Positions 2,140-25,055 of a DNA stretch of 41,070 nt are shown here, in pieces. Location: NCBI GenBank assembly GCA_022826535.1, contig JAJDUS010000073.1:1-41070 (forward strand). Reading direction: 5' to 3'. Source of the stretch: Prochlorococcaceae cyanobacterium jk18x1bzbins.87. Lineage in GTDB: Bacteria; Cyanobacteriota; Cyanobacteriia; PCC-6307; Cyanobiaceae. Below the pieces are notes generated by a model. That model saw only the letters and a program-made list of their open reading frames with translations, made no database searches and was not told the DNA's origin. The stretch's first letter is position 1; each line of letters begins with the position of its first letter. Made by a program: the position numbers and the translations under genes.

Positions 2140-2142
2140 TAG

Positions 2143-2811: not shown

Positions 2812-3190
2812 GGGATCAGTGGTCAAGGCCCCCGGGGCTGATGGTGCTTGAGGGATTCTCCCACTGTGGCGCCAAGACCTTGTCCCTGGTGGACATAACA
2901 GGTGGCAGGAGCCAGCAGTAAGCCCCGTGGGAGACCATTTCATGCGATCTTCCGGCTTCAGGGGAGCCCGGTGGTTTCAGGGATCACCAGGTCTCTGTTT
3001 CTGAGTTGCTCCCCCGGGTCTTCCCGCCACCCCCGCCGCCCGGGAGCCCTGCGGATCCAGCCGGGCCTGAATCAACCGTTGGCGGCGTGGTGATGACCGT
3101 GGTAGTGGATGTGCTGGTGGCCTGGATTGATCCCCGGGTGCGGCTCTGAACCCCAGAATGGGAAGCCCCTGGGCGCTTGCCATGGCATCG
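2143..3190. repeat. Direct repeat R1 (partner 22646-23746)
   Basis: About 1.05 kb that aligns in the same orientation with 22646-23746. It includes the DUF499 5' part, the upstream spacer (shared stretches such as ctcccactgtggcgccaaga and ttcagggatcaccaggtctc) and the first four codons of the lyase gene. In both copies these read M-A-S-P (here ATG GCA TCG CCC then TAA). Homology stops at about 3190. The copies differ by scattered substitutions and one ~60-bp deletion, so the duplication is not recent. Confidence 0.85.
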
Positions 3191-6100: not shown

Positions 6101-6406
6101 GCGCACCAGACGATCACTCAGCACTTGCTCCACTGCCGCGCCGTTGGCAATGGCGGTGATGTCCTGCTGGCTGAGAAAAACACCGGTGATCAGCCGCATC
6201 TGACCATGGCCGCGCCCATCCGGCGTTGCGGCCGCCAACTGCTCCACCCCGTCCAGCACCTGGAGCAAGGCGCGGCTGGTGAAGTAGCCCGTACTGCGCC
6301 AGTAGCGCACCGCATCCATCAGCGCCGGCTTGTAGAAACCCTCCAGCAAGCTCTCCACAGAGCTGCTGAAACGCCGTTTCCAAGCATGATCGGCAAGCCC
6401 GGCCAT
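2984..6406 (-). CDS. PLD-like / SNF2-family helicase of an Hma- or DISARM-like defence set
   Basis: A large two-part protein. The N-terminal ~250 residues carry phospholipase D-like signatures (FHAKEG near 154, FSGSVNET near 171 followed by GWSSNYES). The rest is an SNF2/HepA-type ATPase: Walker A in ADEVGLGKT (~326), DEAH (~440), TATPMQ (~482), VIVFSQY (~772) and RIGRIDRIGQ (~867). It should translocate on DNA. Its neighbours, a DUF1156 methylase 57 bp upstream and a distant DUF499 ATPase, match the helicase-methylase-ATPase (Hma) grouping described from defence-island surveys. ATG 6406 is preferred over an in-frame TTG at 6430; neither has a clear ribosome-binding site. Residues after about 1072 are encoded by repeat R1, so the last ~70 residues, including a Thr run and a Gly run, are foreign read-through. 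Confidence 0.85.
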   Translation of the reverse strand: MAGLADHAWKRRFSSSVESLLEGFYKPALMDAVRYWRSTGYFTSRALLQVLDGVEQLAAATPDGRGHGQMRLITGVFLSQQDITAIANGAAVEQVLSDRLVRTFPFRHVQPGGEDDGALGAELLAWLVDHGHLEIRVALPLHHGQVANDGAIFHAKEGIIEDCHGQRLAFSGSVNETPNGWSSNYESLTTFCSWQRDGEKDIDELEAGFLRLWQNRDDGARTFTLPDAVRRQLAIFQPTEGLPQRLRAHVTAPPPAEPRPESMPAAPSDIDQRRRIVWNYVLHVAASGLPGSERVGEATSAVTPWPHQHRAFQRLWQRWPPRLLIADEVGLGKTVQAGLLLRQAWLSGRAQRILVMAPASILKQWQRELREKFALDWPIYTGKSLEWQATPLRPCGTSQPVDRSGWTVEPCVLVSSHLLRRRERQQEVLDAQPWDLVVLDEAHHARTRRDASGCGVERQRPNTMMQLMQQLRSRTQGLLLLTATPMQVSPLEVWDLLGLLGLPPQWTEETFSHFFQWVEQENPDDATMAALAQLWQSTVDHFGALPLSAFPEALRESRLKRRKVLHALEDRDPLSRRNLDIESRRAVLALARRWTPVQGLISRHSRNLLRAYQQRGAMDLAIGQRHVEDCFLESSAQERVLYDAVEDFISTQYGKADAQTRSAVGFVMTIYRRRLASSVAALVATLDKRLSGQLQQPDEDDVAASEDEDLGSELTMDSEGMGHTLEAMSLREERNAVRELLEQARPLMGQESKGDALRRALDELQAEGYRQVIVFSQYTDTVDALKQLLVAAGHTSLMAFTGKGGQFLDRGGVWQCLTREDTKQRFRQGAARILLCTDAAAEGLNFQFCGALINYDMPWNPMRVEQRIGRIDRIGQQHPKMQVINLHLEGTVETDVYKALKDRIQMFEQVVGTLQPILAEAASVAIGRAVMVGREHRQTARDLAMAAVQQVPEVHGLDLDDGQDPEAMGQVVNQLQPPPLSLQDLEAILERPELLPPGCGARRIGQRDFAWTQPGLRQQLRITCDPTYYDHHSESCELWVPGSPLFPQQRAMELAGSGGRSDSREDFLKALGRCHGKRPGASHSGVQSRTRGSIQATSTSTTTVITTPPTVDSGPAGSAGLPGGGGGGKTRGSNSETETW

Positions 6407-6478
6407 GGTTTCAGAGTTGCTTGTGGGCAAGGAGGGCGCTTCATCCCAACTTTAGGGGGAATCAGTCCAACAAAGCCG

Positions 6479-9463
6479 TCAGCGGGTCGCCAGGTCCCCC
6501 ATGGCCAACTCCAGTTGCTTGGGTGTGCCCACCTGCTCAGCAAAAGCCAGGCGGCGCAAGTTCTCCAGGGCTTCAAAATCGGACGCCGCCGGCAGCGCCG
6601 CCTTCACGGGATCAAAACCGGTGTAACGGGCCGAGAGGGGCAACACCTCCAGCACCGCCTCCAGGGCGGTAAGGAAGTCAACGCTCTTGGCCAGGTTGTT
6701 GTCGCTCACCACCTGCTGGGCGGCATTGAGGTCCGTGGCCCTGGCCCGGTGGGCGCAATGGTGCAGGGCGTCAATCCAGGCGCGGCCGCCGTCAGGCGCC
6801 CCCAGCTTGCCCTTGCCGGCCCGGGTGGAGCTATCCCAGAGGATCAGGTTGCTGGTCTTCTTCTCCGCCAACGTCCCCACCACCTTCTTGTCCAGATCCA
6901 GACCCACCACCCGGGCCAGGCGCAGGGCCTCATCGTAGGGGAACTGGGGCGCCGCGAAGGCATCCCAGGCCAGCACAAACCACTCCGTGAGGGGATCCAG
7001 CCGGGCATGCCGCCGACCGGACGCGAGGGTTTCCATGCGCCAGGCCTTCACCTCCCGCCGGGCGGCATCCAGGGCGTCATCAGGGGTAACGGCGTAGGGG
7101 TCATGGTCTGCCAACCGCTCATCCAGGGTGGTTTGACGCCGCCCCCGCCGCCTGCCCGTCTCATCCATGGGCTTGGGTTGGCCCCGTTTGATAGGCCAAT
7201 GGCGGGAAAATTCCTCCAGCGCCGGGCCAAAACAGGAGAGATACAGATCCACGCCGCGGATGCCCGCCGCCTGGAACTGGGCAATGCGTTGGCGCACGGC
7301 CGCCTTCAAGCGGGGTTCCAGGTCTTCCCAATAGCGCACCCCATCGGCAGGATCCTTGGCCGGTCGCGGGCGACACACCAGCAACACCGTGCTGTTGGCG
7401 GCGGACTTGTCCTTGATGTGCAAAGAGCCCTCCGCCTCGGTATTGATGGGCCAGGAGGCGGTGATGGCAAAACCGGCATCCATCAGCCCCTTGGTGAGGG
7501 CATCCCAGGCGCCGGTGGCCTTGTGGGTGAACATCACGGTCATCACCCCATCCCCCTTGAGCACCCGGCGGCACTCGGCAAAGATGGCCGCCATCTTCTG
7601 CTGGTAGTCCAGCCCCGCCAACGCCTTGGCACCCTTTTTACCCCGGTGCAGCGCTGGATTGGCCACTGCCTCGTTCTCCTTGTCGGTGAGCGGGGCCATG
7701 AAAAGATCGGGATAAAGCAATCCGGCGGTGCGCTTCAGCCACACATAGAAGAAATCGCTCAGCTCCCCATACATGACGTTGTCGTAGTAGGGGGGATCCA
7801 TCACCACCACATCCACCGCGCCATCCGCCAGGTGGGTCATGGAATCCCCGGAGCCGCAGGAGATCACCACGGGGGGTGCTATTTTGCTCCCAACTGCTGG
7901 GCTGGTTGTTGATAGTAAAGGGCCAGAGGTTGGAGGGACTGATGGGTTCGGTGAAGTCAACGCGATTAATTCACCAATACACTTGGCAACCTGATTGAAG
8001 GCCCAATCATAGCCAAGGCCCACAACAAGACATGCCATTTCCGCATAGGACCATTTGATCGGGAAAGCGTGCTGGCGGAAAGTGTGGTCCATAACCTCAC
8101 GTTTGGCGTGCCAAGTAACGCAGCGCGAATTATAGTCAAGTAGCTTATCCAACGCCAAAGCGATATACCCCAGCGCCGCCCGGGTGCAGTCACTCAAGCC
8201 TTCGGGGTTTGCAGACTCCTCATTCACCAGCTCCCGGAATATCTCCACGCTGGTGCCGTGGCACAGCAGTTGGCGGGGTGAGAATAAATCACGCCAGAGG
8301 GGCATCCCGTACTGGATGGGGCGGTCGTCGTTGCAGATTTCGGGAAAGCGCTCATTGGGTACCATGTCCAACGCCTCCCACTCCGGCAGCTTGTCGGCCA
8401 AGGCGGCGGCGATGGCGGCGCTGTTGTCGTCCTCCGGTCGTGGCGCCCGGTAGCCCCGCTGCCATTTGGCCTTTTTGGGCTTGCCCGTTTTGGTGTATTC
8501 CGTGGGCAATTTGCGTTTGAACACCACCGCGAACAACTGCTCCCCCATGCCGCCAGCCTGGGCCTGGGCCTTCACCTGCTGGCCGTCAATCACCCGGCCA
8601 CAATCGGGATAGGGGCAGGTGGCGTCTCCCCCCTTCACCGTGCCCGCGCTCTGCTCCCCCAGCGCTGCCACAATCTCGAACCCGCAGTGGCGGCTGGTAT
8701 CCCCCGGTCCGGCCCCCAGGTGGGGCGCCACCTTCACCCCCGTGCCGTCGGGCGCCAGCCGCCAGTTGGGGGAAAGGGGCACCCTGCCGCCGCAATAGGG
8801 GCAGGTGATGGTGCGGGTCCATAGATAGCCATCTGGACGGCAGTCGGCTAAAGGCTCAGGAGGAAAAACCCAACCCAGCCGCTCGCGCACACGACGCGCC
8901 AGTTCATGGCCAAGGCGTTGGACCTCATCCACCAGAGCAGAACCGAATTTCGTTGGCCACTCCAAGGTGGCTTTCTCCACCAGCACCGCCACTGGATTGA
9001 TGTCGTTGGCATAGGTGGTGCATCCCAGGCGCAGGGCTTCAAAGGGAATAGCGCCGCCTCCAGTCGTGGGGTCCAGCACAGTGGGCTTGGCGATACCCAG
9101 CTTCCGCGCTTCTTCCAACAGCCAGAATGCTTCCTTCTCGCTGGGCAGGTAGCTGAAAGCGCGGCTGTAGCCGTAGGCATCGGCCCCAAGTCGAACTCCT
9201 TCGCGTGTGGCCTTGGCAATGCGCCGCTTCGCCGCCACCGGATCCCCATGAATCCCCAGCATGTGCATGAAGGTTTTGCGGTCGGCATCAGCGGGCAGGA
9301 GGGAGGCCAGCACCGCCGCCCGGGAAGCCACCAGGGGCCGCCGTGCCCACCAGACATGGAGGTAGTAGATGGGTGGCAACGCCGTCATGGAGCGGCGCTC
9401 CCGCACGCTCTCCTCCCCCAACTCGGCGATGGGCAGCCACGACTCGATCAGGCGGTTGGTCAT
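6479..9463 (-). CDS. DUF1156-family DNA methyltransferase
   Basis: A protein of 994 aa starting MTNRLIESWLPIAELGEESV, the characteristic opening of DUF1156 proteins, followed by HVWWARRPLVASRAAVLAS. An SAM-binding motif is visible at ~131 (DPTTGGGAIPFEALRLG) with NDINPVA further on. A zinc-ribbon-like pair follows (CPYCGG ~221 and CPYPDCG). The catalytic DPPYYDNVMYGELSDFFY of an amino-methyltransferase is at ~554. The role inferred from the family is self-marking in a defence system whose effectors are the adjacent helicase and the DUF499 ATPase. The helicase starts 57-73 bp downstream, so the two are probably co-transcribed. An upstream in-frame start at 9523 would add 20 residues unlike the family; ATG 9463 matches homologues' N-termini. 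No internal lesion seen. Confidence 0.85.
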   Translation of the reverse strand: MTNRLIESWLPIAELGEESVRERRSMTALPPIYYLHVWWARRPLVASRAAVLASLLPADADRKTFMHMLGIHGDPVAAKRRIAKATREGVRLGADAYGYSRAFSYLPSEKEAFWLLEEARKLGIAKPTVLDPTTGGGAIPFEALRLGCTTYANDINPVAVLVEKATLEWPTKFGSALVDEVQRLGHELARRVRERLGWVFPPEPLADCRPDGYLWTRTITCPYCGGRVPLSPNWRLAPDGTGVKVAPHLGAGPGDTSRHCGFEIVAALGEQSAGTVKGGDATCPYPDCGRVIDGQQVKAQAQAGGMGEQLFAVVFKRKLPTEYTKTGKPKKAKWQRGYRAPRPEDDNSAAIAAALADKLPEWEALDMVPNERFPEICNDDRPIQYGMPLWRDLFSPRQLLCHGTSVEIFRELVNEESANPEGLSDCTRAALGYIALALDKLLDYNSRCVTWHAKREVMDHTFRQHAFPIKWSYAEMACLVVGLGYDWAFNQVAKCIGELIALTSPNPSVPPTSGPLLSTTSPAVGSKIAPPVVISCGSGDSMTHLADGAVDVVVMDPPYYDNVMYGELSDFFYVWLKRTAGLLYPDLFMAPLTDKENEAVANPALHRGKKGAKALAGLDYQQKMAAIFAECRRVLKGDGVMTVMFTHKATGAWDALTKGLMDAGFAITASWPINTEAEGSLHIKDKSAANSTVLLVCRPRPAKDPADGVRYWEDLEPRLKAAVRQRIAQFQAAGIRGVDLYLSCFGPALEEFSRHWPIKRGQPKPMDETGRRRGRRQTTLDERLADHDPYAVTPDDALDAARREVKAWRMETLASGRRHARLDPLTEWFVLAWDAFAAPQFPYDEALRLARVVGLDLDKKVVGTLAEKKTSNLILWDSSTRAGKGKLGAPDGGRAWIDALHHCAHRARATDLNAAQQVVSDNNLAKSVDFLTALEAVLEVLPLSARYTGFDPVKAALPAASDFEALENLRRLAFAEQVGTPKQLELAMGDLATR

Positions 9464-9804
9464 CCGTGGGGGCGAATCCTGGGTGGGAAGCCTGGGACCA
9501 GTGCATGACAGTCCTTGGGTCATCTCTTTGTGGGCTTAGCGCCAATGACAACGCACAGACACCCAACTGGTAAGCCCTTGCACCACCGGCCGATTCAAAT
9601 CAGTTGATGGAGAGCAGGAGCAACATGCGGCGAGGCATCCTCCCACGCCCCCCCCCAGAGGGCTCGCGGTGGGATGGCCATTGCCGAGTTGGCAGGCTCA
9701 TCCTTGCGGCCCCCAGCACACAGAGACTCCCATGCCTCCAGAGCCTGGGCAGATCCAGGGACGTGACCTCAGCGCACCTCGTTTGCCCTGGGGAGGAATC
9801 CGCC
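9464..9804. other. Spacer without a recognisable gene
   Basis: Between the methylase start and the first tandem repeat I see no convincing coding frame on either strand. The sequence is GC-rich with CCATGG-like words and a C run (9652-9657). The promoter of the methylase-helicase pair should lie here, but I cannot point to convincing -35/-10 boxes. Confidence 0.5.
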
Positions 9805-11850: not shown

Positions 11851-12375
11851 TCATCGCTTTTTCCTGTCTGGCGATTGCCCCCGCCCGTCAAACAGTGCTT
11901 TTGCCAAATTCCTTGACTGGCCGCATTTGGCCGTCTGAATCGTCAACTGAGCCCCCCGAAAGCGAACTTTTGCCCTATTTAGTTTCTTTAGCTGATCCTT
12001 GTGCAGACCCCCGGCGTGAAACAAAATTGGATGGCAAATAGAACCGCATGACTCCGGGATCATACGTTCAGCAAAACACGCGGCGGCTTGCAGTTTTTCG
12101 CTGATGGGAGTTGCTTTCACTTCCCCAGTCTTAAATTCCAGGGGCGCAACCACCAATTTACCGGCGGGACTCTGGAAGAAGAGGATTGAATCGCATTTCT
12201 TCTCGTTATCGGGAAAATAATTGACCAGACCCTCACCCTCCTTACTTTCCGGGTCGACAATTAAGCGGGGTGATGGTGTGCCACTCAGATCAACTTTACA
12301 ATTGTCCTTAGAGCAAAACTGGCGGCAGTGTTCAGCCCCAATCTTGTCTTGTATGTACTTCAACATATCATTCAT
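11851..12375 (-). CDS. Putative PD-(D/E)XK-like partner of the adjacent ATPase
   Basis: A 174-aa protein of no named family that I recognise. It has a cysteine cluster (C17, C21, C26 in EHCRQFCSKDNCKV). It also has a segment CDSILFF...VVAPLEFKTGEV in which D62, E80 and K82 sit in beta strands spaced as in PD-(D/E)XK nucleases (D-x17-E-x-K). I infer a nuclease-like fold. Its ATG (12375) lies inside the end of the upstream ATPase gene (8-bp overlap), so the two are translationally coupled. Two-gene sets of an ABC/OLD-type ATPase and a nuclease (Septu, Gabija and PARIS are known examples of the general plan) are defence systems. This pair does not match any of those by its second protein as far as I can tell. 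Confidence 0.7.
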   Translation of the reverse strand: MNDMLKYIQDKIGAEHCRQFCSKDNCKVDLSGTPSPRLIVDPESKEGEGLVNYFPDNEKKCDSILFFQSPAGKLVVAPLEFKTGEVKATPISEKLQAAACFAERMIPESCGSICHPILFHAGGLHKDQLKKLNRAKVRFRGAQLTIQTAKCGQSRNLAKALFDGRGQSPDRKKR

Positions 12376-13951
12376 TGATGATTCCTCCTTGGCTTTTGAT
12401 TAGCTCAAGCTGATTCTGTAATTTCGCAGAATCATTGTACAGAGTCTCTGCCACGTCGGCGTAGTCCTCTGGTTCCAGGCCATCAACCCGGTCAAAGGGA
12501 ATTTCCTGCACCGTTGTCCCTTCTCCGTCTTGGCTGTCCTTGAACAACCAGACCCCCACCTCTTGGGGATCCAGCCATGGAGCCGAAGCATCCGGTTCAG
12601 AATCTTCCCCTTGCGCTTGCCTCAATTCCCCTTCCCTTACCAGATTGGCCATTTTCTGCAGCAGCCAGTCACTATGGGTGGTCACCACTACACGAACACC
12701 GGCACGCACAAGGGCGGCCAAGGTTTTCGCCATCTGGGTCTGGGCGGCGGGGTGCAGGTGGGCTTCCGGCTCTTCGATGATGAGCGTGTCTCCAGGCTTG
12801 AGATAGCCACGCATAAACAAGACAATTGGCGTCAACTCGGACACCATTGAGGAGGTGCGGTTCAACCGGATGCTTTGTTGTATTCCCTGGGGACGATAGA
12901 CAAACTCTGGGTAACCTCCAGTTGTAGATTGGTCGATAAGAATATCTCCAGAAAGTATATTCTTCTCAAGATCTTTTGCCAACTTGGCAATTTGCTCGGA
13001 AGCCGCCAGTCTAGAATTTTTTTGGCGTTCATCATACAGGATGAGCCTCCGCACAAAGTCGGCAATAGCGCCAGGGAGTGTGGGAATTTGTGGAGTGGGC
13101 TCAAAGCCCGCGTATGAAGAGCGGCCAACCAAAGCACTAGCGATAATCCGATGACTCTCCATGATGCCACCGCGCACTGCGGGCACATAGAATACGTCAC
13201 TGGCCCACTGATTTTCCGCATCTGGATTGATCAGCAACACCAGGAATTCATGCCAGGCCAAGGGAGGAATCTCTTCTGCCCTCTCGATCTGGCGAAGTAG
13301 CTGAAGCAACCTGTCGTTCCTTCGGCTATTGATTCCTCTGTTACCACCCTGTAAAAGAATGTCTTGAACACTACCGCTTACCGAAGCTTCGTCGCTGGAC
13401 GACTCCACAGCGAATTGCCAAAGGTCTCCGCTTAGATCATTAACATTCAAAGACACTCTCAATCTACCGGACGAAGACTGGCGCATAAGCTCTAGTTCTG
13501 ATTCAACATCAAAACAGTATCGGAGTCGATATAATAAATCAGAGCTAAATTGGTTAGGATCGTTAATATGAGATACTAACTCATTGTGTACAAAGTGAGG
13601 TAATTCCGAGAATTTAATTTGCCCTCTCTGGGTGATGAGCTTTTTACGCATCTCCTCAAGTGTCTTTCCTGGAATCTCTATTGGTTCCCAGTAACCCGGC
13701 GGCATGTGGAGATCCATGTACCAGCGTTCGGGCAGGGGAAACCGGGGAAAGCCTGCGAAAACACCATGCAGTGTATAGATCAGAAGGGCAAGATAGGTCT
13801 TCCCCGTGTTGCTTGGTCCCACAAATACGGTGAGCGGCCTCAGTTGGATGTTGGCATGCGCCACAGGCCCGAAGTCCTGCACCTCAAGGCGGACGTTGGG
13901 CTGCCCAAACTGCGGCGTCTCATTAGCGACGGAAGCCTCATGGTTAGCCAT
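12368..13951 (-). CDS. AAA/ABC-type ATPase (RecF/OLD-like) of a two-gene defence candidate
   Basis: A 527-aa protein with an N-terminal strand 'VRLEVQDFGPVAHANIQLRP' and Walker A GPSNTGKT at 45-52. Walker B is LIIEEPEAHLHPAAQTQMA at about 388, followed by VRVVVTTHSDWLLQKMANLV (D-loop/switch His in TTHS). The absence of a long Rad50-type coiled coil and the position of Walker B place it with the single-chain AAA_15/AAA_21 ATPases common in defence loci. There is no TOPRIM domain at the C-terminus, so it is not a complete OLD nuclease; the nuclease function may be supplied by the coupled downstream gene. The module is AT-richer than the phycocyanin genes, suggesting acquisition by transfer. Confidence 0.85.
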   Translation of the reverse strand: MANHEASVANETPQFGQPNVRLEVQDFGPVAHANIQLRPLTVFVGPSNTGKTYLALLIYTLHGVFAGFPRFPLPERWYMDLHMPPGYWEPIEIPGKTLEEMRKKLITQRGQIKFSELPHFVHNELVSHINDPNQFSSDLLYRLRYCFDVESELELMRQSSSGRLRVSLNVNDLSGDLWQFAVESSSDEASVSGSVQDILLQGGNRGINSRRNDRLLQLLRQIERAEEIPPLAWHEFLVLLINPDAENQWASDVFYVPAVRGGIMESHRIIASALVGRSSYAGFEPTPQIPTLPGAIADFVRRLILYDERQKNSRLAASEQIAKLAKDLEKNILSGDILIDQSTTGGYPEFVYRPQGIQQSIRLNRTSSMVSELTPIVLFMRGYLKPGDTLIIEEPEAHLHPAAQTQMAKTLAALVRAGVRVVVTTHSDWLLQKMANLVREGELRQAQGEDSEPDASAPWLDPQEVGVWLFKDSQDGEGTTVQEIPFDRVDGLEPEDYADVAETLYNDSAKLQNQLELIKSQGGIINE

Positions 13952-14678
13952 TGCTGCTCCTCAACGCCTTTGCCATCATGGGGATCAACCTGCGGAAGCC
14001 CACGGCGCTTCCCGTCTGTGGTGGGCTGTTTCCCGCCTTGGCAGTGCGGGCGCCATGGGCAAGGCGACGAGTGGGTGGTGGTGGTGCCAGCCTGACCACT
14101 GAACAGGCTTCTCTTGATCCCATGGGCTTGGTTCCAGGTGGAATGGCAGCCCAAGCTATCACAGCACCCCATGGAGCGTGGCATCAGTTGGAAATGGCTG
14201 ATGCCCATTGGTCTTCTGCAGTCAAGCAGCTTGGCCGCCACGACTGACTGGGCGCAACCGGGAGGAGCAGGATCACCAGCGTCTGGCGGGGTGTCTTGCC
14301 ATGCATGGCCCCATGCCCAACCAGCAGGCAGCTTTTTCCCCATGGCCCAATTCACCAAGCGTAGGTGAGGTTTTGCCAATGGGGCCTGGATGCAGGTTCT
14401 GAGTGATGGCTGGATGGCCCAGTTTGACGTAATGGGAAACCACTAGTGATCTCTACTTATGCACATCAGAGCGTTAAAGACCTGTCTCCCCGCCCCCTGG
14501 CAGCAGAAACGGCAAGACCACGCACACTTTGCCACGGGCTACATCTCACTAGTGTCGTAAAGGGCACAGTGCCGCTTGTTATCCACGCCTGCCCAAGGGC
14601 TGCCAGTCATGCCTCCCCATCTGGCATCCCCCCAACGCTACTTAACGCTTCGCAGATTAAGCCTTTCTCACCCTTACA
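13952..14678. other. Gene-free stretch between two defence modules, with a gene scar
   Basis: No convincing gene on either strand. The stretch is GC-rich and CCATGG-rich from 13960 to about 14400, then AT-richer. At 14283-14347 it contains a remnant of the 3' end of the small gene at 19863-20315 (see separate entry). The promoter of the ATPase pair (13951 leftward) is expected near 13950-14000, but no box is convincing. Confidence 0.6.
14283..14347 (-). pseudogene. Remnant of the 3' end of the DUF7680-like gene
   Basis: Plus-strand sequence ctggcggggtgtcttgcc then atgcatggcc, ccatgccca, ccagcaggcagctttttcc aligns with 19901-19964 (cccggcggggttttttgcgg, tgcatggcc, atgcccagccag, taggcagcttcttccc). 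The latter encodes the REEAAYWLGMAMHRKKPRR segment of the intact gene. Only about 65 bp are clear, with small gaps, in the same orientation. It lies exactly between the two cargo modules, as if one module had been inserted next to the gene together with a duplicated gene end. Confidence 0.6.
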
Positions 14679-15653
14679 TCACTTCTTTGTCAGCTTGGGA
14701 CCAATGTAGACCACATAGACTGGTTGTCCCGGTTGGATGGGCCAGGAGAAGTGGAGGCGAAGCTGTAAATGTCGCTCTTTACCATGGTAAGGGCAAAAGA
14801 GCTGATGGTCAGGACGCTCTGGATGGGGGAAGATCAGCTTCTCTTTGAAACGCTGCTTCTCCGTCTCTGATGAGTCACTAAACCATGCAGCCTTACCCGT
14901 AAAGTGTTTTTTGTAAATTTGTTGATCTTCTACTGATTGCGCTCCGTCTTTGTCACGTGCATCGGCAAGTTGACTAAGAACATCAAGACGTGCCACCAAA
15001 GTCTTTGCCGAGCACTGAGCAAAAGGAAGTTTAGCAAGTGGCTCAAAGCAGTCCTCTGCAAAAGTCAGTCTACTGAACTGGCTTAACGCAGTATTCTTTA
15101 GGGCGCTCCATGAACGAATTAGTGGCTCTACATCTTGTAAGTTGCTCTTTAATGTGCTGAGATCCAGAAAGTTGTCAATGTCCACCGATTGGCCTCCTGA
15201 TTGGCCATTACCGTCTCGATAGATAACATTCACAGGGGAGAACTCCCAATCGGAAGGCTTAATGCTGACAATTCCGCACGCAGAACCGCCCAACATTCGA
15301 AATGCAGCCTCACCAACTGCAGTATCCGTAACAACTTTGTGATCTTTATTGACACATTTCAGTAAATCGTTCTCGTTATGCTTGCGTTGTTCCTGGGCAT
15401 CCCAGAATGGGCCTTTAGTGAGCCAAAGCATGATTGCTCGGCGTTTATTCTTGTCCTCCAACTGATTGATCGTTTGCTGCATTGAGAATCTCTGATCAGG
15501 ACTGCTGTTGACAAGATTGCTATTGCAGTACACTTCCCGATCGAAACGCTTCGCAGCGGCACGCATTTCCATCAGCCGCTCAAGAGCCTGGTGAAATGAG
15601 TCGAGGTCATGAAATTGTTCGTGAATCGAGAGATCGTTAAACAGAAGATCCAT
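14679..15653 (-). CDS. Unknown 324-aa protein, last gene of the five-gene cassette
   Basis: The product starts MDLLFNDLSIHEQFHDLDSF. The ATG at 15653 is one base after the TGA of the ATPase gene, so translation is coupled; an upstream in-frame start at 15671 lies inside that gene. No named domain recognised. Visible conserved-looking blocks: MLWLTKGPFWDAQEQRKHNE, DTAVGEAAFRMLGG, PSDWEFSPVNVIYRDG, and a C-terminal HFTGKAAWFSDSSETEKQRF ... FCPYHGK ... LRLHFSWP ... PVYVVYIGPKLTKK. I believe similar hypothetical proteins occur beside ATPase/DUF262 genes elsewhere, but cannot verify it here. The C-terminal F-C-x2-H with nearby His and the invariant-looking acidic residues make a nuclease or effector domain possible. 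Confidence 0.75.
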   Translation of the reverse strand: MDLLFNDLSIHEQFHDLDSFHQALERLMEMRAAAKRFDREVYCNSNLVNSSPDQRFSMQQTINQLEDKNKRRAIMLWLTKGPFWDAQEQRKHNENDLLKCVNKDHKVVTDTAVGEAAFRMLGGSACGIVSIKPSDWEFSPVNVIYRDGNGQSGGQSVDIDNFLDLSTLKSNLQDVEPLIRSWSALKNTALSQFSRLTFAEDCFEPLAKLPFAQCSAKTLVARLDVLSQLADARDKDGAQSVEDQQIYKKHFTGKAAWFSDSSETEKQRFKEKLIFPHPERPDHQLFCPYHGKERHLQLRLHFSWPIQPGQPVYVVYIGPKLTKK

Positions 15654-15654
15654 A

Positions 15655-16809
15655 TCAGTCCCACCCCGCAAAATAGTTCATATCTTTGTCGAACTGGTCA
15701 AAGAACCCGTCTGGCCATCGATCAAGGTTGCCATTGGCATCGATAGCGGGACTTTCCACTTGCGGCGCCATTTGAGATGCCGTGCCTTCTGGCTGTTCAG
15801 ACCGAGGCCGAAAGAAATGCAACTTGACATCCTCACTGGGGAGAGTTTTGTCCTTGACGGCCCGCCGGATGCCGTTCAGCACATGGTCACTGTGGGTCTC
15901 AACCAGCACCTGCACCCCTGCTGCCGCCACCTCGGCAAGAAAACGCCCCATCCTGGTCTGTCCAGCAGGGTGAAGGTGTACCGCAGGGTTTTCAATGAGC
16001 AGCAGGTCTTCCCTCCGGGCCGATAGGGCAGCCACAACCACAGGAAGCACCTGGGTAAGGCCAAAGCCGGTATTGACGGGGCGATGATAGTCCGTAGCGC
16101 TGGAGGTGCGAATCCCCAGGGTGACACTGTTTGTGCGGGGAACCTTGTTGAGGTCCAGCACACAGCCGGGGAAGAACTGTTGCATACGCTTCTCCACCTG
16201 CCGGAGTCGGGTAGGCGGTCTATCGGGCAACACCAGCTTGGGGAGCACCTGATCGTCACGGCCAGAATAAAGGATGCTGATGGTAGATTCTCCCCAAGTG
16301 CCAACAACTGGGGTGTGCTGGGGTGCGTCAAGCGCATACAACTCTCGTGGTCCCATCCTTTCTGCCGTCAGGTAAGTGAGCCGGTGCAACCGTTGGGTCA
16401 GGGAGCTTTTCCCATGGGAAGATGGGAGCAATCTTTGCAGACTGGACGGATTCTTTACCTCCACATCATCAATCTTAACCTGGGTCACCGCCATGGCCAT
16501 GTCTTCACGCTCACCAGTAAACGTCCATTGATAAGGTGTTTCGTCATCCAGCAGGCCAATTATGCACTCTCGACGACCGTAAACCTGGTCAACCACATCC
16601 GCCACAGTGCCCAAATCAATGACAGAGCCATTGAGCATCAGCTTATCCGACCATTCATGGTCGTGCATGGTCTGATGGAGCAAAACCAAGGCCTGCATTA
16701 CTGACGATTTTCCCGAAGCGTTGGTGCCGGAGAGCAGGGTCAGTGGGGCCAAGGGTAGTTGCAGGGACGCGAAGCACTTGAAATACCTGAGATCAAGCTG
16801 TGTGAGCAT
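15655..16809 (-). CDS. AAA ATPase with DUF3696-type C-terminus
   Basis: A 384-aa protein starting MLTQLDLRYFKCFASLQLPL. An AGGAGG lies six bases before ATG 16809, which decides the start over an in-frame TTG at 16812. Walker A SGTNASGKSS is at ~28. Walker B/signature LLLIENPAVHLHPAGQTRMG is at ~267, followed by VQVLVETHSDHVLNGIRRAV. The tail (VKLHFFRPRSE ... IDANGNLDRWPDGFFDQFDK) is the DUF3696 region found on this class of SMC-like ATPases. The gene overlaps the end of the DUF262 gene by 17 bp and runs directly into the next gene. In defence loci such ATPases typically sense or regulate a nuclease partner; here the partners are DUF262 and the 324-aa protein. Confidence 0.88.
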   Translation of the reverse strand: MLTQLDLRYFKCFASLQLPLAPLTLLSGTNASGKSSVMQALVLLHQTMHDHEWSDKLMLNGSVIDLGTVADVVDQVYGRRECIIGLLDDETPYQWTFTGEREDMAMAVTQVKIDDVEVKNPSSLQRLLPSSHGKSSLTQRLHRLTYLTAERMGPRELYALDAPQHTPVVGTWGESTISILYSGRDDQVLPKLVLPDRPPTRLRQVEKRMQQFFPGCVLDLNKVPRTNSVTLGIRTSSATDYHRPVNTGFGLTQVLPVVVAALSARREDLLLIENPAVHLHPAGQTRMGRFLAEVAAAGVQVLVETHSDHVLNGIRRAVKDKTLPSEDVKLHFFRPRSEQPEGTASQMAPQVESPAIDANGNLDRWPDGFFDQFDKDMNYFAGWD

Positions 16810-17992
16810 CAAGAACCTCCTGAATTGCTTGTTGGGCTGCTTGGAAGCGGTGCATCACGCTCCTGGTGCTGCTTGTCCCAAGAGTGATAGCCGCATCAAA
16901 TGCTTGATCCGCCAGGAGTCGGTAGAGGACCTGACGGAGGGGCTTGACATGGTCTTGCACATGGTCCGTTGCATAGTGGGATAGACCGGTAGACATCACG
17001 TCCCACAAGGAGGCATTGATTGGTCTTCGCTTGTCTTGATTAGGTTTGTGCTTCCTGAAGGCATGTTTGTCGAACAGGATAAAGTTATTATTAAGACTTC
17101 TGTGTAGCTGTGCAGACAGTTCTGAAAGCTCAGCTTGTTGCATGTTGTTCATTTGCTTGAGGCAATTAGCAAGAAATTTATCCATGTCAGCACAGTAACT
17201 ATCATGACCAAGTAGCTGAAAAGCACAGAACCGATTCACGAATTCTCGATCTCTCATGGTTTTCTCATTGAGGCTTTTTCCGGTTGCCTTTAAGAAGATT
17301 TGGGACTTTGATTCCTCCTTAAGAAACCTTGTGCCTTCACCCATATACAGACAGTTGCGCATTTGTTGCCTGGTAAGTGGAACACTGTCATTCACCCTTT
17401 CAAAAATGTCTAGCTGGGCACTCTCTGACACTTTTGCATCAATAAGATAGAAGATGAGATTACAATCTTCGATTCGATTCTGGAGCTTGGTTGGCAGATC
17501 CATAAAGTAATTGCCGTTTAGAGAATCTCGATGTGGCAATTTCAGCTTTAATTGGTTCTTTAAAAATCGTTGAAAGGTGGATAGACGCTGCAATCCGTCC
17601 ACAACAATCATCCGCCCTTGTTTATCCTCTGCCAGATAGAAGACCGGCAGAGGAATACGCATAATCACTGACTCAATTAACTTGCTCTGCTTGTCTAGTG
17701 ACCAAATAAAATCCCTCTGGAAGTCGGGATTCATGATGTACCTGTCCTCCTGGTCAATCCGTCGAATCACCTCATAGATGGTCCGAACCTCATTGCGGAT
17801 TAGCAGTTCGTCCAGAGGATAGTCACCCCATGAACCCGGGTCTGAGTCCAGGCCTTCGACATCTTCACTGCGTTCATTGCCATTGGCCGCTTGGTCAAGC
17901 GGATCATCCCCCAGCGTCTTAGGCTCCAGTTGAGGGCCTTGTCCAGCTTCATCGTCATTGCCAGGCCAGGCGGCTGGGTCAGCTTGGGTCAT
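16793..17992 (-). CDS. DUF262-domain protein (ParB/GmrS-like)
   Basis: The DUF262 core begins around residue 70: TIYEVIRRIDQE, NPDFQRDFIWSLDKQSKLIE, SVIMRIPLPVFYLAEDKQGR, MIVVDGLQRLSTFQRFL and DLPTKLQNRIEDCNL, with ERVNDSVPLTRQQMRNCLY further on. The DGxQR motif is the ParB/Srx-like nucleotide-binding signature shared with the N-terminal half of GmrSD-type enzymes. There is no DUF1524 (HNH) domain, so it is not a complete GmrSD nuclease. ATG 17992 is preceded by aaagggag at good spacing. A GTG at 18079 overlapping the upstream stop is the alternative and would add 29 residues. The first ~60 residues are acidic and probably disordered. Confidence 0.85.
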   Translation of the reverse strand: MTQADPAAWPGNDDEAGQGPQLEPKTLGDDPLDQAANGNERSEDVEGLDSDPGSWGDYPLDELLIRNEVRTIYEVIRRIDQEDRYIMNPDFQRDFIWSLDKQSKLIESVIMRIPLPVFYLAEDKQGRMIVVDGLQRLSTFQRFLKNQLKLKLPHRDSLNGNYFMDLPTKLQNRIEDCNLIFYLIDAKVSESAQLDIFERVNDSVPLTRQQMRNCLYMGEGTRFLKEESKSQIFLKATGKSLNEKTMRDREFVNRFCAFQLLGHDSYCADMDKFLANCLKQMNNMQQAELSELSAQLHRSLNNNFILFDKHAFRKHKPNQDKRRPINASLWDVMSTGLSHYATDHVQDHVKPLRQVLYRLLADQAFDAAITLGTSSTRSVMHRFQAAQQAIQEVLDAHTA

Positions 17993-18075
17993 GGTGTTGC
18001 TCCCTTTCTCTTGCAGGGATAGCTTAACCATAGTTCTCTGCCTTGATCTGCCTTGACAGTATACTGGCTCATGGC

Positions 18076-19272
18076 TCACCCCGCTAACTCCTCACCTTCA
18101 GGTGCCACTTCCTCCTCGCTCTCATTGCGGAGGACACCCTCAACCTGGGCATTGAGCAACCGCCAACGCTGGCCTTTGCGTTCCAGGTCACCTGTCAAGA
18201 CCACCATCGCTTTGTCCTTATGGGCCTGAAGCGCTCTCCCATAGTCCGACTGTTCCAAGATTGCTGTAACAGCTTGTTGTTTGCCATCGATGTGGGTTGT
18301 GAGATGGACGGTTCCGTCATCCTTTGTTTCCGAGCGCTTCAAGAGTTGGACAAAGCCGGGGAGATGAACCCCCTCTCGCGGCGCCCGGTCCCGAAACCGT
18401 CGGGCCGCTTCCTGCAGGATGGGTGAATCTGTCCTGCCGAACTGAACAAGCGCTTCAGGCAAGGACGATAGTCTGGTTTGAGCCCAGGAGACGCCAATAT
18501 CCATTTTGGGGAAGGGTCCAATGAGTCGCACCAGGGCATCGCACAGATTCGCGCTGACACCGTTCTCTACCTGATTGGCAAAGGCATCAGTGTCACCAGC
18601 CATTGTTTTCTCGGTGCTTTCACGGGCTGCTTTCAGCGCCTCAACCAAGCGTCTCGTCATTTTGCGCTGGATGGGAGTATCCTCGCCCTCGCCCTCGTCC
18701 CCCCAGTCGTCTGATAGGCCTGGAAATAGCTCTTGCTGCAGTGGCTGCACTAGCGGCGGCACAACCGGTGTCAACACCGTAATGACAAAGCTGCCCTGAT
18801 GGGTCTGCCCCAGGCGCACCTGCTCTAATAAACTCTTCGCTTTTTGGTTTGCGCCAGCACGGTAGACTGGTTGTGGGTTGTTATCAAGGGAGCAAGCAAC
18901 CGACTGGATGAGATCGCGGGCGCCACCAACAAGGTCAACGCCCTCGTTGAGGCCCAAGCTGCCGTCGTCGCTATCGGCAACGCGGATGCGGACCACATCC
19001 CGGTCACCCGTCACCAAGGACCGGTAGATGGTCCGTTCGTCCTGGTCTGCCACCTGGGCAAAGACCTTGATCAGCGTTGAAACGACGGTTGCGTAGTCGC
19101 CCAGATGGTCCGTTCGCGGAACAATGATCTCTGGCCGATCCTGGCCGGCGTAAACATGGGAATGCACCCGGTAGATCTCGCCCCGCTGCCAGCCAGCACT
19201 ACGGGCATAGGCCGCAAGGGCCGTTGGGGAAATGGCTTTCAGTGCTTCCCGGTCGTGAATGGTGGCTTTCAT
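18076..19272 (-). CDS. Unknown 398-aa protein of the five-gene cassette
   Basis: The product starts MKATIHDREALKAISPTALA; the ATG overlaps the stop of the DUF4365 gene (TGATG), so it is coupled. No named domain recognised. Visible blocks: GWQRGEIYRVHSHVYAGQDR, PEIIVPRTDHLGDYATVVST, VRIRVADSDDGSLGLNEGVD, QPVYRAGANQKAKSLLEQVR, LGQTHQGSFVITVLTPVVPP. A central acidic linker (DDWGDEGEGEDTP) and a C-terminal region (AVTAILEQSDYGRALQAHKD, WRLLNAQVEGVL) follow. No membrane segment or signal peptide. Encoded between two nuclease-fold proteins and ahead of the ATPase, it may be a structural or sensor subunit; this is inference. Confidence 0.75.
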   Translation of the reverse strand: MKATIHDREALKAISPTALAAYARSAGWQRGEIYRVHSHVYAGQDRPEIIVPRTDHLGDYATVVSTLIKVFAQVADQDERTIYRSLVTGDRDVVRIRVADSDDGSLGLNEGVDLVGGARDLIQSVACSLDNNPQPVYRAGANQKAKSLLEQVRLGQTHQGSFVITVLTPVVPPLVQPLQQELFPGLSDDWGDEGEGEDTPIQRKMTRRLVEALKAARESTEKTMAGDTDAFANQVENGVSANLCDALVRLIGPFPKMDIGVSWAQTRLSSLPEALVQFGRTDSPILQEAARRFRDRAPREGVHLPGFVQLLKRSETKDDGTVHLTTHIDGKQQAVTAILEQSDYGRALQAHKDKAMVVLTGDLERKGQRWRLLNAQVEGVLRNESEEEVAPEGEELAG

Positions 19273-19775
19273 CAGAAGACCTCCCCCTTCCGAGACCGTT
19301 CCATAAGTGTTTGCAGCGCCTCAACATCCAATCGGTTGTCCTCAGGGATGTGAACGGTAACCGTTACCCTGTTGCTGACCTCCCCTTTCCCTTGCAGGCT
19401 CAGCCAGTAAGCCCGACGCCGCAGAGTGAGTTCCTCAGGGGTGACCATCATCCAACGGGACTCCTCCTGCGGTAGCTCCAACACCACCAATAGCCGAGGA
19501 GTCTGGGTTGGACAGCGGAGATCGTCGTAGTTTTTGATGCTCAATGAAGGAAATGAGCGGCAACCGTTCCGTCCTGCGCCCAGCGTTGCCGTCGCTTTCA
19601 GTTGCAGATCCAGAGCCGGATGCTGCGGCTCGCCTCCGTGAATGGACACATCAATACTGTCCCGGTCCAGGTCCCGTTCGGAGATGGTGAACCCTGCCCG
19701 CGCCGCTAGCGCCTTGACATAGACAAGAGATAACCTCTCCTTCTGGTCCGCCCCGGTGAGCATCTTTTGCGTCAT
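19272..19775 (-). CDS. DUF4365-domain protein, first gene of the five-gene cassette
   Basis: A 167-aa protein with the DUF4365 order of motifs: GADQKERLSLVYVKALAARA, then DRDSIDVSIHG, then ALDLQLKATATL, NYDDLRCPTQTPRLLVVLEL and the closing WLSLQGKGEVSNRVTVTVHI. DUF4365 is a PD-(D/E)XK-related family; the Asp of DSIDVS and the Q-x-K of LQLKAT are the expected metal-site positions. It is the first gene of the run and overlaps the following gene by one base in TGATG. The 87-bp gap upstream, to the small gene at 19863, leaves little room for a separate promoter, so the cassette may be read through from the DUF499 gene. Confidence 0.8.
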   Translation of the reverse strand: MTQKMLTGADQKERLSLVYVKALAARAGFTISERDLDRDSIDVSIHGGEPQHPALDLQLKATATLGAGRNGCRSFPSLSIKNYDDLRCPTQTPRLLVVLELPQEESRWMMVTPEELTLRRRAYWLSLQGKGEVSNRVTVTVHIPEDNRLDVEALQTLMERSRKGEVF

Positions 19776-19862
19776 TTGGCCTCCACGGATCTGAGACTAG
19801 CTTGTACTGGGGCCAATGGTCTTCCATCCAGAGCCGCCCTCCCATGAATGGCCCCTCCCCCA

Positions 19863-20315
19863 TCAGTGGGCGGAGAGCAGTAGCCGCAAAGCCGCCAGCA
19901 CCCGGCGGGGTTTTTTGCGGTGCATGGCCATGCCCAGCCAGTAGGCAGCTTCTTCCCGGGCCATGGCGTCAATGCCGCGGGCGCAGTTGTCCATGGCGAT
20001 CACGTTGCGCATGGGGGCCAGCAGCTTGAACAGTAACCCCATGGCCATGGCCAACTCCTCCGAGAGCCGGTCACGGCGGGATTCCCCCTTGCGGAGCTTG
20101 GCGAGGCTCACCTTCTCGGTGTTGAGGCGCCGCAGCACGGCCCCCTCCACCAACAGGAGCTTATGGCCGCCGAGGCCGGCAATCCGGCGGGGCTGCTTGA
20201 GTTCCGGGGTGGCGGTGCTGGGCACCTGCCACACTTCCAGCAGCAGGTCACTGGGACCCCGCTGGCGGCTGCGCAGTTCATAGGCGGGGCGGCCTGAGGG
20301 GATGGCAATGGTCAT
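19863..20315 (-). CDS. Small DUF7680-like protein coupled to the DUF499 ATPase
   Basis: A 150-aa protein: MTIAIPSGRPAYELRSRQRG, 'LLLEVWQVPSTA', 'RIAGLGGHKLLLVEGAVLRR', 'SEELAMAMGLLFKLLAPMRN' and a C-terminal REEAAYWLGMAMHRKKPRRV. I believe this matches the small proteins now called DUF7680 that accompany DUF499/DUF1156 genes, but I cannot check it. Its ATG overlaps the DUF499 stop as ATGA, so the two are translationally coupled. It would normally be followed by the DUF1156 methylase; here the two are about 10.4 kb apart because other modules lie between. A fragment of its 3' end recurs at 14283-14347. Confidence 0.7.
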   Translation of the reverse strand: MTIAIPSGRPAYELRSRQRGPSDLLLEVWQVPSTATPELKQPRRIAGLGGHKLLLVEGAVLRRLNTEKVSLAKLRKGESRRDRLSEELAMAMGLLFKLLAPMRNVIAMDNCARGIDAMAREEAAYWLGMAMHRKKPRRVLAALRLLLSAH

Positions 20316-23300
20316 GGACCGCTCAGCTCCAGGCCAATGGTGGCCATCTGGGTGCTCAGGCCTGCCCTGGTGAGGCGTCTGATCCAGTCCTCACCCTGAT
20401 CGCTCCAGGTGAGGGGCGGGGCATAGGTGAGCTTGTATTTGATGTCCAGGGACTTCTCGCCACCCCGCCGCCATTGTCCCTCAACGAAGTCGCGCAGGAT
20501 GGTGGCCTCCTTCGGCGTGCCTTTGAACTCGAAACTCCACTCTGCCGCGCCGTCGCCACTGCTCCAGCCCCCTTCCATCATCTCCACCTGCACCGTGGCG
20601 CCCGGCTCGGCTTTGAGCAAGGCCAGGGGCACAAAGCCGTCACCACTGTTCATTCGCCATGTGAGGGAGCAGACCCCCTTGCCGGAGTTGCCCACCTGCT
20701 GGGCCAACTGGGTGAGGACCGTCTTGATGTTGCCGGTGCGCTCCAGCATCCCTGGGGGTGTTGGGGTTGTGGATGGCGCCACGCCGTGGCCATGGCTGCC
20801 GGCCACCGCATTATTGGCGTTACTGCTGTCCCCACCTCCTGTGAACGCCAAGTCAGGCGCAACAGGTGACGGTTCAGGTGCAGCAGTGCGCGGTGGCCAG
20901 ACGCCCAGCTCCTCCGCCTTCTCCAGCATGTAGACCTTGGCGTCCTCGCTGATGTTCAACGTCCCTGGCGGCTGGTCTTTGCCCTCCAGCCGCTCGCCCT
21001 CCTTGTAGATAAACACCCCTTCATCCAGCCCCATCCGCAGACACTTCTTGAGCACCTCATTACCAAATTACCAATCAGGATGGGCAAGGCGGGGTCGCGG
21101 TGGTACTCATTGCGCAGATCCCGACTGCTCATCACCCCACAGCGCCGCAAAGGGGTTTTGTCAGCCATGAAGTTGGGCGCTGGCGGCGCGTCATCGGGAA
21201 GAATCAACTCCCCGGCTTCCCGCAACACCCGCTCCACCTGCTTTTGCCCCACGCCGGGCTCACTGCTGGCATTGGTGACGGTGATGGCGGCATGGACAAG
21301 GGGCGCCTCCGGCCAGGGGCCGCGCTCGGGGTAGAACACATGGCGATAGGCCTGCTGCACCGCCAGGGCAAAGGCTTGTTGCGCCCGTCCATGGCGCTCT
21401 TTCACCTGCTCCTGCTGGTGGATCTGCAGGCTGGCGAACAGGTCCCCCCGCTGCATCTGTCCCAGGGCCAGTGTGGTGCGGGTCTTGCGCAGCATGTCGT
21501 CCACCTGCAGCCCATCGGCACAGACAAACACCAGGTTGTTGCGGTTGCGCCGTGTGTTGGCGTTATCCCCCCTCTCCTTGAACAGCCGCACCACCAACTC
21601 CGGTAGATGCACGTTGTCTTGCGCCACCGTGTGGCCCTCCCAGTGGAGCACCGCCAGGTAGGGGCCATCCGTATCGTCGGGAATGTCCGCCGGGCTGACC
21701 GGGAACACCACCGGCTCAAAACACTGCCTGGCCTTGGCAAAGATGGCGGCAATGTGGCGGTTCAACTCCTGGCGGACCGTCTCCAAATCAAACTGTCCCT
21801 CCCGTTTTCTCACCATCTGGTTGAGGTTGGCTTCGGTGAGAACGCGCAGCTTGCTGGTGGTGCTGTCGTCCAGGTACTCCGACGCCTCCTGTAAGTGGCG
21901 CACCGCCTTGTCGATAAAGGCGGGATCCAGCCCCGGGGCATAAAGGCTGTAATTCAATTCCAGCCGGCTGAGACCCTTGAGGGGATCGTTGAAGGCCAGG
22001 GAGTGGAGCAGCACCGTGCGGGCTGTCAGGGAGCCATAGGGGGCAAGGCCTGCAAATTCACCCGCATCCAGTTGCTGGGCCAGGGCTTTACCGTCCTCGT
22101 CCGTGGTGCGGGCCACGTCAGCCCGGATTGCTGGAACGAAGGCCTGGAGCCCCAGCTTGGTGGAGATCTCCATGCGGATCCGTTCATTGCCGGGATCAAT
22201 GTGGTGCAGGTGGATGGCGGTGGCGTCACCGGGCTTTTCCCGCCAAAGCTGGGCAACGGTCTGGGCCAGCAGCCGCAACATGCCCCGCACCCGTTGGAAG
22301 TTCTCCAGGGTGGCGGTTTTCTGCATCAGGGTGTCGATGAGCTCCGGATGGAGTGGGTAGCCATTGCCCAACGCCTCGGCGCGATCATCCCTCTGCCGCA
22401 CGGGTGGCAGGGCCTCGACATGGCGGCTCCAGAGGTCCTGGTAGGCCCGCACCACTTCCCCCACCCGACTGCGGTCGATGGATTCAAACAGGCGACGGCA
22501 CAACACCTGCACCGTCTCGTCTTCACTGGTGGGGGTGAGGGCCGTGACCTGTCGTCCCGTCACGGATTGCAGTTCCGCAAAGATTCGATCAATCCGCTGG
22601 TTCTCCTCCCCATAGGCATCCACCGCCTGGCCACCACGGCCCAACGCCAAGGTGAACACCAGCACAGCGTTGGGGGCGGAGTTTACCGCCTTGACCAGAT
22701 CGGTGAGGAAGGGGGTGAGTTGCTCAGCAGCCCGGCCAGCGGCAGGACCCTTGAGCTTGCGCAAATAGATGGACAGCTCGTCCATGAGGATCAGTACGGG
22801 CCGCTCGCCCATGAGTTCCCGTAAGGTTTCTGCTCCGGGAGGCGCCGCACCCAACCGGTCACTGTTGCGGATGCGTCCATAACCACCCCGCCCCGCCAAC
22901 TGCACGGCCAACTCCCCCCAGGGGGTATAGGCCAGGATGTCTCCTCTCATCCGCCGGCCGTTCATGGGGTCGGCGTTCTCCCCGTCAAAAATCGCCACCG
23001 TCACCGGTTGGCCGGGCAGCGTGGCCGGATCCACGAACTCCGCCAGGTTGGGGATCTGCTCGGGTGCCGTGAGGATATGGTTGAGGCCAATCAGAGCATG
23101 GGTCTTGCCGCCGCCATAACTGGTGTCCAGCCGCAGGATGCTGCCCAACTGGTTGTCGGTGCCGGTGAGCCGCCCCACCACCGCCCTGATCAAATCCTTG
23201 AGGCCACGGGTGGGGTGGGTGTTGGCAAAGAATAGGGCGGGATCTTTGTAGAGTTCCGGCGCCGTACCCTTGAGCACCTGACTCAGGTCGGCGGCGAAGT

Positions 23301-23373
23301 CCTCATCCCGGATCCGTCCCGCAAGGACATCCTGGCGCGGTCGGCACAGATCGTAGATGGTGGGGGGACGCAT
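20312..23373 (-). pseudogene. DUF499-family ATPase, broken by an 8-bp tandem duplication
   Basis: The start MRPPTIYDLCRPRQDVLAGR is typical of DUF499. Walker A (DTSYGGGKTHALIGL) is at ~83-97 and Walker B (VLILMDELSIYLRKL) at ~193. The frame runs to residue ~770 (HRDPALPILIGN) and then goes out of register at 21059-21074, where ATTACCAA occurs twice on the plus strand. Removing one copy joins ILIGN directly to EVLKKCLRMGLDEGVFIYKE and restores a protein of about 1,017 aa ending LELSGP. Without correction there is an N-terminal 805-residue product with a scrambled tail, and a second frame (20312-21055) with its own ATG. The gene starts the leftward island. All ATPase motifs are intact, so reversal of the duplication would restore function. 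A sequencing error is the other explanation. Confidence 0.85.
21059..21074. repeat. 8-bp tandem duplication causing a frameshift
   Basis: Two adjacent copies of ATTACCAA (21059-21066, 21067-21074). On the coding strand this is TTGGTAAT twice, turning ILIGN-EVLKK into ILIGNLVMRC. Eight bases are not a multiple of three, so the duplication alone explains the broken frame. Confidence 0.9.
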
Positions 23374-23746
23374 GGGATTCAGTGGTCAAGGCCCCCAGGG
23401 CTGGTGGTGCTTGGGAAATTCTCCCACTGTGGCGCCAAGACCTTGTCCGTGGTAGAAACGACGGATGCAGGAGCCAGCAGTAAGACGCATTGTGACGCCA
23501 TTTCAAACGATCTTCCGGCTTCATGGGATCCCAACGGCTTCAGGGATCACCAGGTCTCTGTTCCGGGGTTCCCCGCCCAGGGTCTTCGCGTCACCCTCAG
23601 CTCCCAGGAAGCCTTGCGGACCCAACCGGGCCTGAATCAGAATTGTTGGCAGCGTGGTGATGACCGTGCTGGTGGCCTGGATTGATCCCCGGGTGCGGCT
23701 CTGCACCCCAGAATGGGAAGCCCCCTGGGCGCTTGCCATGGCTTCC
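22646..23746. repeat. Direct repeat R2 (partner 2143-3190)
   Basis: Same-orientation partner of R1, spanning codons 1 to ~243 of the DUF499 gene, the whole spacer and codons 1-4 of the lyase gene at 23738. This copy is the functional context of both genes. The left limit is set by where R1 is cut by the IS; the right limit, at codon 4 of the lyase gene, is a true end of homology. Confidence 0.85.
23374..23737. other. Divergent spacer between the defence island and the phycocyanin cluster
   Basis: Some 364 bp between two divergent genes (DUF499 leftward, bilin lyase rightward). No gene is convincing here. Promoters for both directions should be in this stretch, but I see no clear boxes. Almost all of it is repeated at 2812-3180, so the copy there may carry a stray promoter. 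Confidence 0.6.
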
Positions 23747-25054: not shown

Positions 25055-25055
25055 A

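What the first reader, a model, noticed from the sequence alone, without database searches (positions are those of the whole stretch)
21059..21074. 8-bp tandem duplication switches off the DUF499 ATPase, possibly reversibly
ATTACCAA x2 is the only lesion in a ~3-kb gene whose motifs are otherwise intact. Tandem octamers can contract by slippage, so this could act as a phase-variation switch for the whole system, or be a young inactivation or an assembly error. An unrelated 8-bp tandem repeat also lies upstream of cpcB, so octamer duplication may be common in this genome.
Basis: partly seen in the sequence, partly recalled or inferred. Interest (0 to 1): 0.65.

Follow-up and report, generated by a model that had tools for sequence, protein, structure and literature searches.

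The report
Recent frameshift in a cyanobacterial antiphage gene
One strain of a sponge-associated cyanobacterium carries a private, apparently recent 8-base duplication that cuts short a gene of a BREX-related antiphage system; all sequenced relatives with the site have one copy, and nothing points to a true on/off switch.

Summary
The octamer duplication (ATTACCAA x2, 21059-21074) is real and exactly placed. It lies in the DUF499 AAA+ ATPase gene (23373-20312, minus strand) of a DUF499/HmaC-DUF7680-DUF1156 methylase-helicase operon, a known BREX-related ("Hma") type. Seventeen cyanobacterial homologous loci covering the site carry one copy, in an open frame wherever the whole gene is present; the closest is 98.4% identical over 3,062 bases, and this is the only gap between them. 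Against that relative the coding indels in the shared 16-23 kb defence block are all in frame except this one. The product keeps 769 native residues, then 36 wrong ones. It breaks off inside the last winged-helix and loses the C-terminal RRM-like domain; loss of function is inferred. Phase variation is not supported: two copies only, one state seen per genome, three quarters into the gene, no other 8-base indel in 217 kb aligned. Conserved residues downstream of the break have begun to change on this lineage (1 silent, 5 replacement; p=0.04, weak). "Isolated lesion" holds; "switch" does not. Assembly error is unlikely but untestable here. Best reading: an ordinary, young loss-of-function allele.

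The parts
21059..21074 (-). 8-bp tandem duplication (TTGGTAAT x2 on the coding strand) causing a frameshift after codon 769
   Evidence: sequence, TRF, single copy in all homologues
20956..23373 (-). 5' part of the DUF499/HmaC AAA+ ATPase gene: 769 native codons plus 36 off-frame codons
   Evidence: HmaC E=4.3e-100, Pfam DUF499 E=2.7e-27
20312..21055 (-). 3' part of the same gene, out of frame (end of last winged helix, linker, RRM-like C-terminal domain); 97% identical to the intact relative
19863..20315 (-). DUF7680 protein; its ATG overlaps the DUF499 stop (ATGA), conserved next gene in the operon
   Evidence: Pfam E=2.5e-40, conserved in relatives, overlap
11851..19775 (-). cargo slot between DUF7680 and the methylase: PDC-M02A/B (19272-19775, 18076-19272), NsnA/B/C (16793-18079, 15655-16812, 14679-15671), AAA ATPase (12368-13951) and partner (11851-12375)
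   Evidence: PADLOC and Pfam; content differs between relatives
6479..9523 (-). DUF1156 DNA methyltransferase (HmaB-like), about the same length as in relatives
2984..6430 (-). PLD/SNF2 helicase (HmaA/PLD_Helicase-like); open, with a roughly 70-residue tail absent from relatives
2131..2811 (-). decayed 5' fragment of a second DUF499 gene (83-84% identical), with in-frame stop

Best explanation
A chance 8-bp tandem duplication arose recently on the lineage of this strain and frameshifts the DUF499 (HmaC) ATPase gene of a BREX-related methylase-helicase defence operon. Shown: the insertion is private to this genome among those sampled, it is the only frame-breaking change, and it replaces residues 770-1017 with 36 wrong residues. 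Inferred: the truncated protein keeps the AAA+ core but loses the third helix and wing of its last winged-helix domain and the C-terminal RRM-like domain that has been proposed to recognise invaders; early termination reduces coupled translation of DUF7680, whose start overlaps the DUF499 stop; restriction is therefore off or weakened, while the methylase may still be made. It is a young loss-of-function allele, not an evolved switch. It could still revert at a low rate, as any short tandem duplication can.
For: Single copy at the site in 17 cyanobacterial loci, with open frames of about 1021-1075 aa in the genomes scored. Closest relative L040/L049: 98.4% identity and one gap in 3,062 bases. 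Coding indels in the 15.7-23.4 kb block shared with that relative: +12, -6 (in frame) and only the octamer out of frame. Low dS in this block (0.03-0.14) against 0.14-0.5 in the flanking cpc-region genes, so the block was recently shared and the insertion post-dates it. Window-lineage substitutions: upstream piece 9 silent/3 replacement, downstream piece 1/5, including changes at conserved columns V786, E952 and D982. Break at residue 769/770, the start of a predicted helix (769-782) in a winged-helix fold; [quoted passage not shown] Domain roles from PMC12839542.
Against: Substitution counts are small (Fisher p=0.043; the contrast with the other lineage p=0.08) and part of the downstream piece is a fast-evolving linker. 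No expression or activity data. The downstream ORF has a GTG start (21055) and could in principle be made as a separate protein. No reads, so an assembly or consensus error remains possible. The structural model is of moderate confidence (pLDDT 71 for the C-terminal part) and the PDB fold search gave no match with E<=0.001.
Confidence: 0.77

Rival explanations
1. Phase-variation switch: the tandem octamer expands and contracts by slippage and turns the whole defence system on and off.
For: Two perfect tandem copies can contract by slippage; defence methylases and the BREX-related Pgl system are known to phase-vary (references listed; review); gene otherwise intact.
Against: Two copies only, no array of variable length in any relative; late position in the gene; one state per genome; conserved downstream residues changing; no other 8-bp copy-number change in 217 kb. 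In a study of silenced resistance genes, reversion by slippage rose with tract length (PMC6819657), so a two-copy tract should revert rarely.
Confidence: 0.06
2. Assembly or consensus error; the real genome has one copy.
For: Draft assembly in 145 contigs; no reads available; the gene is otherwise as conserved as a functional one.
Against: Not a homopolymer; no second full-length copy of the gene in the assembly to cause a chimera; it would be the only 8-bp indel in the 217 kb sample; downstream replacement changes at conserved sites fit a real break.
Confidence: 0.08
3. Functional split gene: both pieces are translated (the second from GTG 21055) and work together.
For: The downstream ORF stays open for 247 codons at 97% identity; the break lies upstream of a flexible linker and a separate domain; the ORFs overlap.
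Against: The break is inside a conserved predicted domain, not in the linker; no Shine-Dalgarno-like sequence at the usual distance before the GTG; none of the close relatives is split; replacement-biased changes downstream.
Confidence: 0.06
4. Scar of an insertion sequence: a transposon with 8-bp target duplication inserted and was excised, leaving both target copies.
For: 8 bp is a usual target duplication size for several IS families (own knowledge); transposase remnants exist in the genome.
Against: Only degenerate IS256-type pieces in this genome; no ISL3- or IS6-type transposase; no other 8-bp footprints in 217 kb. It would lead to the same loss-of-function outcome.
Confidence: 0.03

Closest known systems
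Hma system (PADLOC; HmaA helicase, HmaB methylase, HmaC ATPase), regrouped as DUF499-centred BREX-Related (BR) systems (PMC8565338, PMC12839542)
   Same: DUF499 AAA+ ATPase, DUF1156 adenine-methylase-like protein and SNF2 helicase in one operon; C-terminal winged helix plus RRM-like domain in the ATPase
   Different: Helicase has a PLD/HKD-like N-terminus as in Type-2 BR, but the conserved small gene is DUF7680, not DUF3780; other defence genes sit between DUF7680 and the methylase; the ATPase here is frameshifted
Phase-variable restriction and BREX-like loci (for example Pgl of Streptomyces, type III mod genes)
   Same: A length change in a repeat alters the reading frame of a defence gene
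   Different: Those have repeat tracts with several observed states; here there are two copies in one genome and one copy in all others
Ordinary frameshift pseudogenes
   Same: Private, recent out-of-frame indel; downstream conserved sites starting to change
   Different: Very young; both pieces almost unchanged and theoretically revertible

Membership tests
DUF499-centred BREX-Related / Hma system | DUF499 AAA+ ATPase with Walker A | tested here: met
   Pfam DUF499 E=2.7e-27; HmaC E=4.3e-100; GGGKTH conserved in all homologues. The gene is truncated.
DUF499-centred BREX-Related / Hma system | DUF1156-bearing DNA methylase in the locus | tested here: met
   Pfam DUF1156 E=2.6e-15; HmaB E=9.1e-74
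DUF499-centred BREX-Related / Hma system | SNF2-type helicase in the locus | tested here: met
   Pfam SNF2-rel_dom E=6.5e-19, Helicase_C E=7.5e-19; PADLOC PLD_Helicase E=1.3e-79
Type-2 BR system | HKD/PLD nuclease domain at the helicase N-terminus | tested here: inconclusive
   PLDc_2 E=2.3e-4, below Pfam's cut-off; best PADLOC model is PLD_Helicase
Type-2 BR system | Standalone DUF3780 gene | tested here: not met
   The small core gene is DUF7680 (E=2.5e-40), conserved across relatives; no DUF3780 hit among the ten proteins of 11851-23373 that were scanned
NCBIfam anti-phage DUF499 equivalog NF042962 | Score over curated cut-off of 1200 bits | tested here: not met
   217.6 bits
Phase-variable (simple-sequence-repeat) locus | Repeat tract of several units | tested here: not met
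   2 units here, 1 in all relatives
Phase-variable (simple-sequence-repeat) locus | Both states observed in close relatives or within a population | tested here: inconclusive
   Across genomes only one state each; the one-copy state is ancestral. No reads for the population.
Phase-variable (simple-sequence-repeat) locus | Reversible switching at high rate | not testable with these tools
   needs reads or cultures

The most novel reading that the evidence does not exclude
A minimal two-copy octamer acts as a low-rate, reversible off-state of a BREX-related defence system in a sponge symbiont population, so that defence is lost and regained by single slippage events.
Probability: 0.06. Interest if true: 0.5.

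Novelty: new member of a known kind. Interest (0 to 1): 0.2.

Why it matters
It is one clean, datable example of how an antiphage system is switched off by a single small duplication soon after the island was shared between close lineages, next to older decayed copies of the same gene. It fits the known rapid gain and loss of defence genes. The more general point is a warning: a short tandem duplication in a defence gene is not by itself evidence of phase variation.

Tried and rejected
Two DNA searches failed on length. Searching viral contigs for the one- and two-copy site found nothing. Programmed frameshifting was considered and rejected: no canonical slippery heptamer at the site and relatives need none. 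IS scar: only degenerate IS256-type pieces and no ISL3 or IS6 transposases. Full-length structure prediction was poor (pLDDT 55); a C-terminal model was better (71), but the PDB fold search was not significant, so the RRM-like label rests on element order and on PMC12839542. Literature searches for precedents of two-copy octamer switches surfaced none; I judged this from titles and abstract starts and read only selected papers.

Full report
What is there. The sequence ATTACCAAATTACCAA stands at 21059-21074. The gene runs on the minus strand from 23373 to 20312. On the coding strand the octamer is TTGGTAAT, twice. Translation gives an 805-aa ORF (769 native codons, then 36 off-frame) ending at 20956, and a second ORF of 247 aa (21055 to 20312) holding the native C-terminus.

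Is it more than chance. A perfect tandem octamer alone is not remarkable: 3 in this window with 1.0 expected, 30 in a 623-kb sample of the genome with 9.8 expected. The comparison with relatives is what matters. All 17 cyanobacterial homologous loci that cover the site have one copy, and those with a whole gene read straight through. The nearest, a Prochlorococcaceae bin (L040, the same contig as G008:C23), is 98.4% identical over 3,062 bases with one gap, which is this octamer. So it is a true insertion, private to this genome among those sampled. Other close matches are named Candidatus Synechococcus spongiarum, so the window is taken to come from that sponge-associated group.

The only lesion. 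A base-by-base alignment of 15001-28619 to that contig lists every indel. Within 15.7-23.4 kb the coding ones are in frame (a 12-base expansion of CCTCGC, a 6-base difference of ATCAAT) except the octamer; a further 1-base difference lies between genes.

The system. The ATPase matches HmaC (E=4.3e-100) and Pfam DUF499; downstream are DUF7680, a cargo of other defence genes (PDC-M02A/B, NsnA/B/C, an AAA ATPase and partner), a DUF1156 methylase and a PLD/SNF2 helicase. In relatives the core DUF499-DUF7680-methylase-helicase recurs in most loci where the contig is long enough, with the cargo between DUF7680 and methylase varying from none to several genes. PMC12839542 describes such loci as DUF499-centred BREX-Related systems and regards Hma (PMC8565338) as the same thing. 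The present locus resembles Type 2 in its helicase, but carries DUF7680 where Type 2 has DUF3780; the main text of that paper does not mention DUF7680.

What the break does. Native residues end at 769. In the predicted C-terminal structure of the intact relative, 769 is the first residue of a helix (769-782) in the last winged-helix fold; a disordered linker (828-871) and a domain with RRM element order (from 873) follow. PMC12839542 suggests these last domains help recognise invaders. The truncated protein therefore keeps the AAA+ core, with a broken winged helix and no RRM-like domain. The DUF499 stop overlaps the DUF7680 start as ATGA; early termination some 640 bases upstream should reduce coupled translation (inference). 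That restriction is off or weakened is inference, not shown.

How old. dS between this strain and its nearest relative is 0.026 and 0.046 in the two pieces and 0.03-0.14 across DUF7680 to NsnB, against 0.14-0.5 in the flanking cpc-region genes. The block was probably exchanged recently; the octamer came after. Polarised with four relatives, window-lineage changes are 9 silent/3 replacement before the break and 1/5 after it; three of those five fall at conserved columns (V786, E952, D982). This suggests relaxed constraint after the break, but the counts are small (p=0.043).

Is it a switch. Features expected of phase variation are missing: a tract of several units, different lengths among relatives, an early position. 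In the sampled genome-wide comparison (217 kb aligned, 197 indels) this is the only 8-bp indel. A two-copy tandem repeat can revert, but probably rarely: in PMC6819657 slippage reversion rose with tract length. The period-8 excess in this genome comes in part from long arrays of GGCGATCC-type octamers in a dispersed element, often at contig ends, unrelated to this site.

Limits. No reads were available, so assembly error cannot be excluded. The genome comparison is a sample, not the whole genome. The structure models are of moderate confidence and the PDB search gave no significant match.

Verdict. Observation confirmed; inactivation likely; phase variation not supported. An ordinary young loss-of-function allele in a known kind of defence system.

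Noticed in passing
2131-2811 (-): Decayed 5' fragment of a second DUF499 gene just beyond the helicase; a relative (L026/L051) conversely has methylase and helicase fragments just upstream of its intact DUF499, so repeated duplication or replacement of this operon with decay is likely.
   Followed up: partly
19863-20315 (-): DUF7680 is the next gene after DUF499 in the cyanobacterial loci with the full gene and in two non-cyanobacterial loci (L042, L043), taking the place of DUF3780 in Type-2 BR systems; possibly an undescribed core component.
   Followed up: partly
2984-6430 (-): The helicase reads about 70 residues past the end of its relatives (1148 aa against 1071-1082), into sequence that precedes the DUF499 fragment; probably a lost stop.
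   Followed up: partly
15.7-23.4 kb: The defence block is far more similar to the G008 relative (dS 0.03-0.14) than the flanking cpc-region genes (0.14-0.5), with divergence jumping in NsnC (dS 1.27): signs of recent exchange of the island.
   Followed up: partly
L072:7409-7544, L142:1-136, L147:16776-16911, L059:103-173, L061:103-141: Long arrays of octamers (GGCGATCC, GATCACCG, GGCGACCC), 17 copies at three contig ends, next to a conserved dispersed sequence (CCCTTGACATGACGGCCATCAAAA, 7 places in this genome, 1 in G008, 0 in seven other close relatives); candidate octamer-repeat elements that break the assembly.
   Followed up: partly
25025-25054: TTCAGTGC x3.75 upstream of cpcB; the perfect tandem form is absent from the nearest relative.
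   Followed up: no
9790-10846: About three copies of a 356-bp tandem repeat between the methylase and the cargo genes.
   Followed up: no
37185-39437 (+): Ankyrin-repeat protein with TerB and DnaJ domains in a sponge symbiont genome.
   Followed up: no
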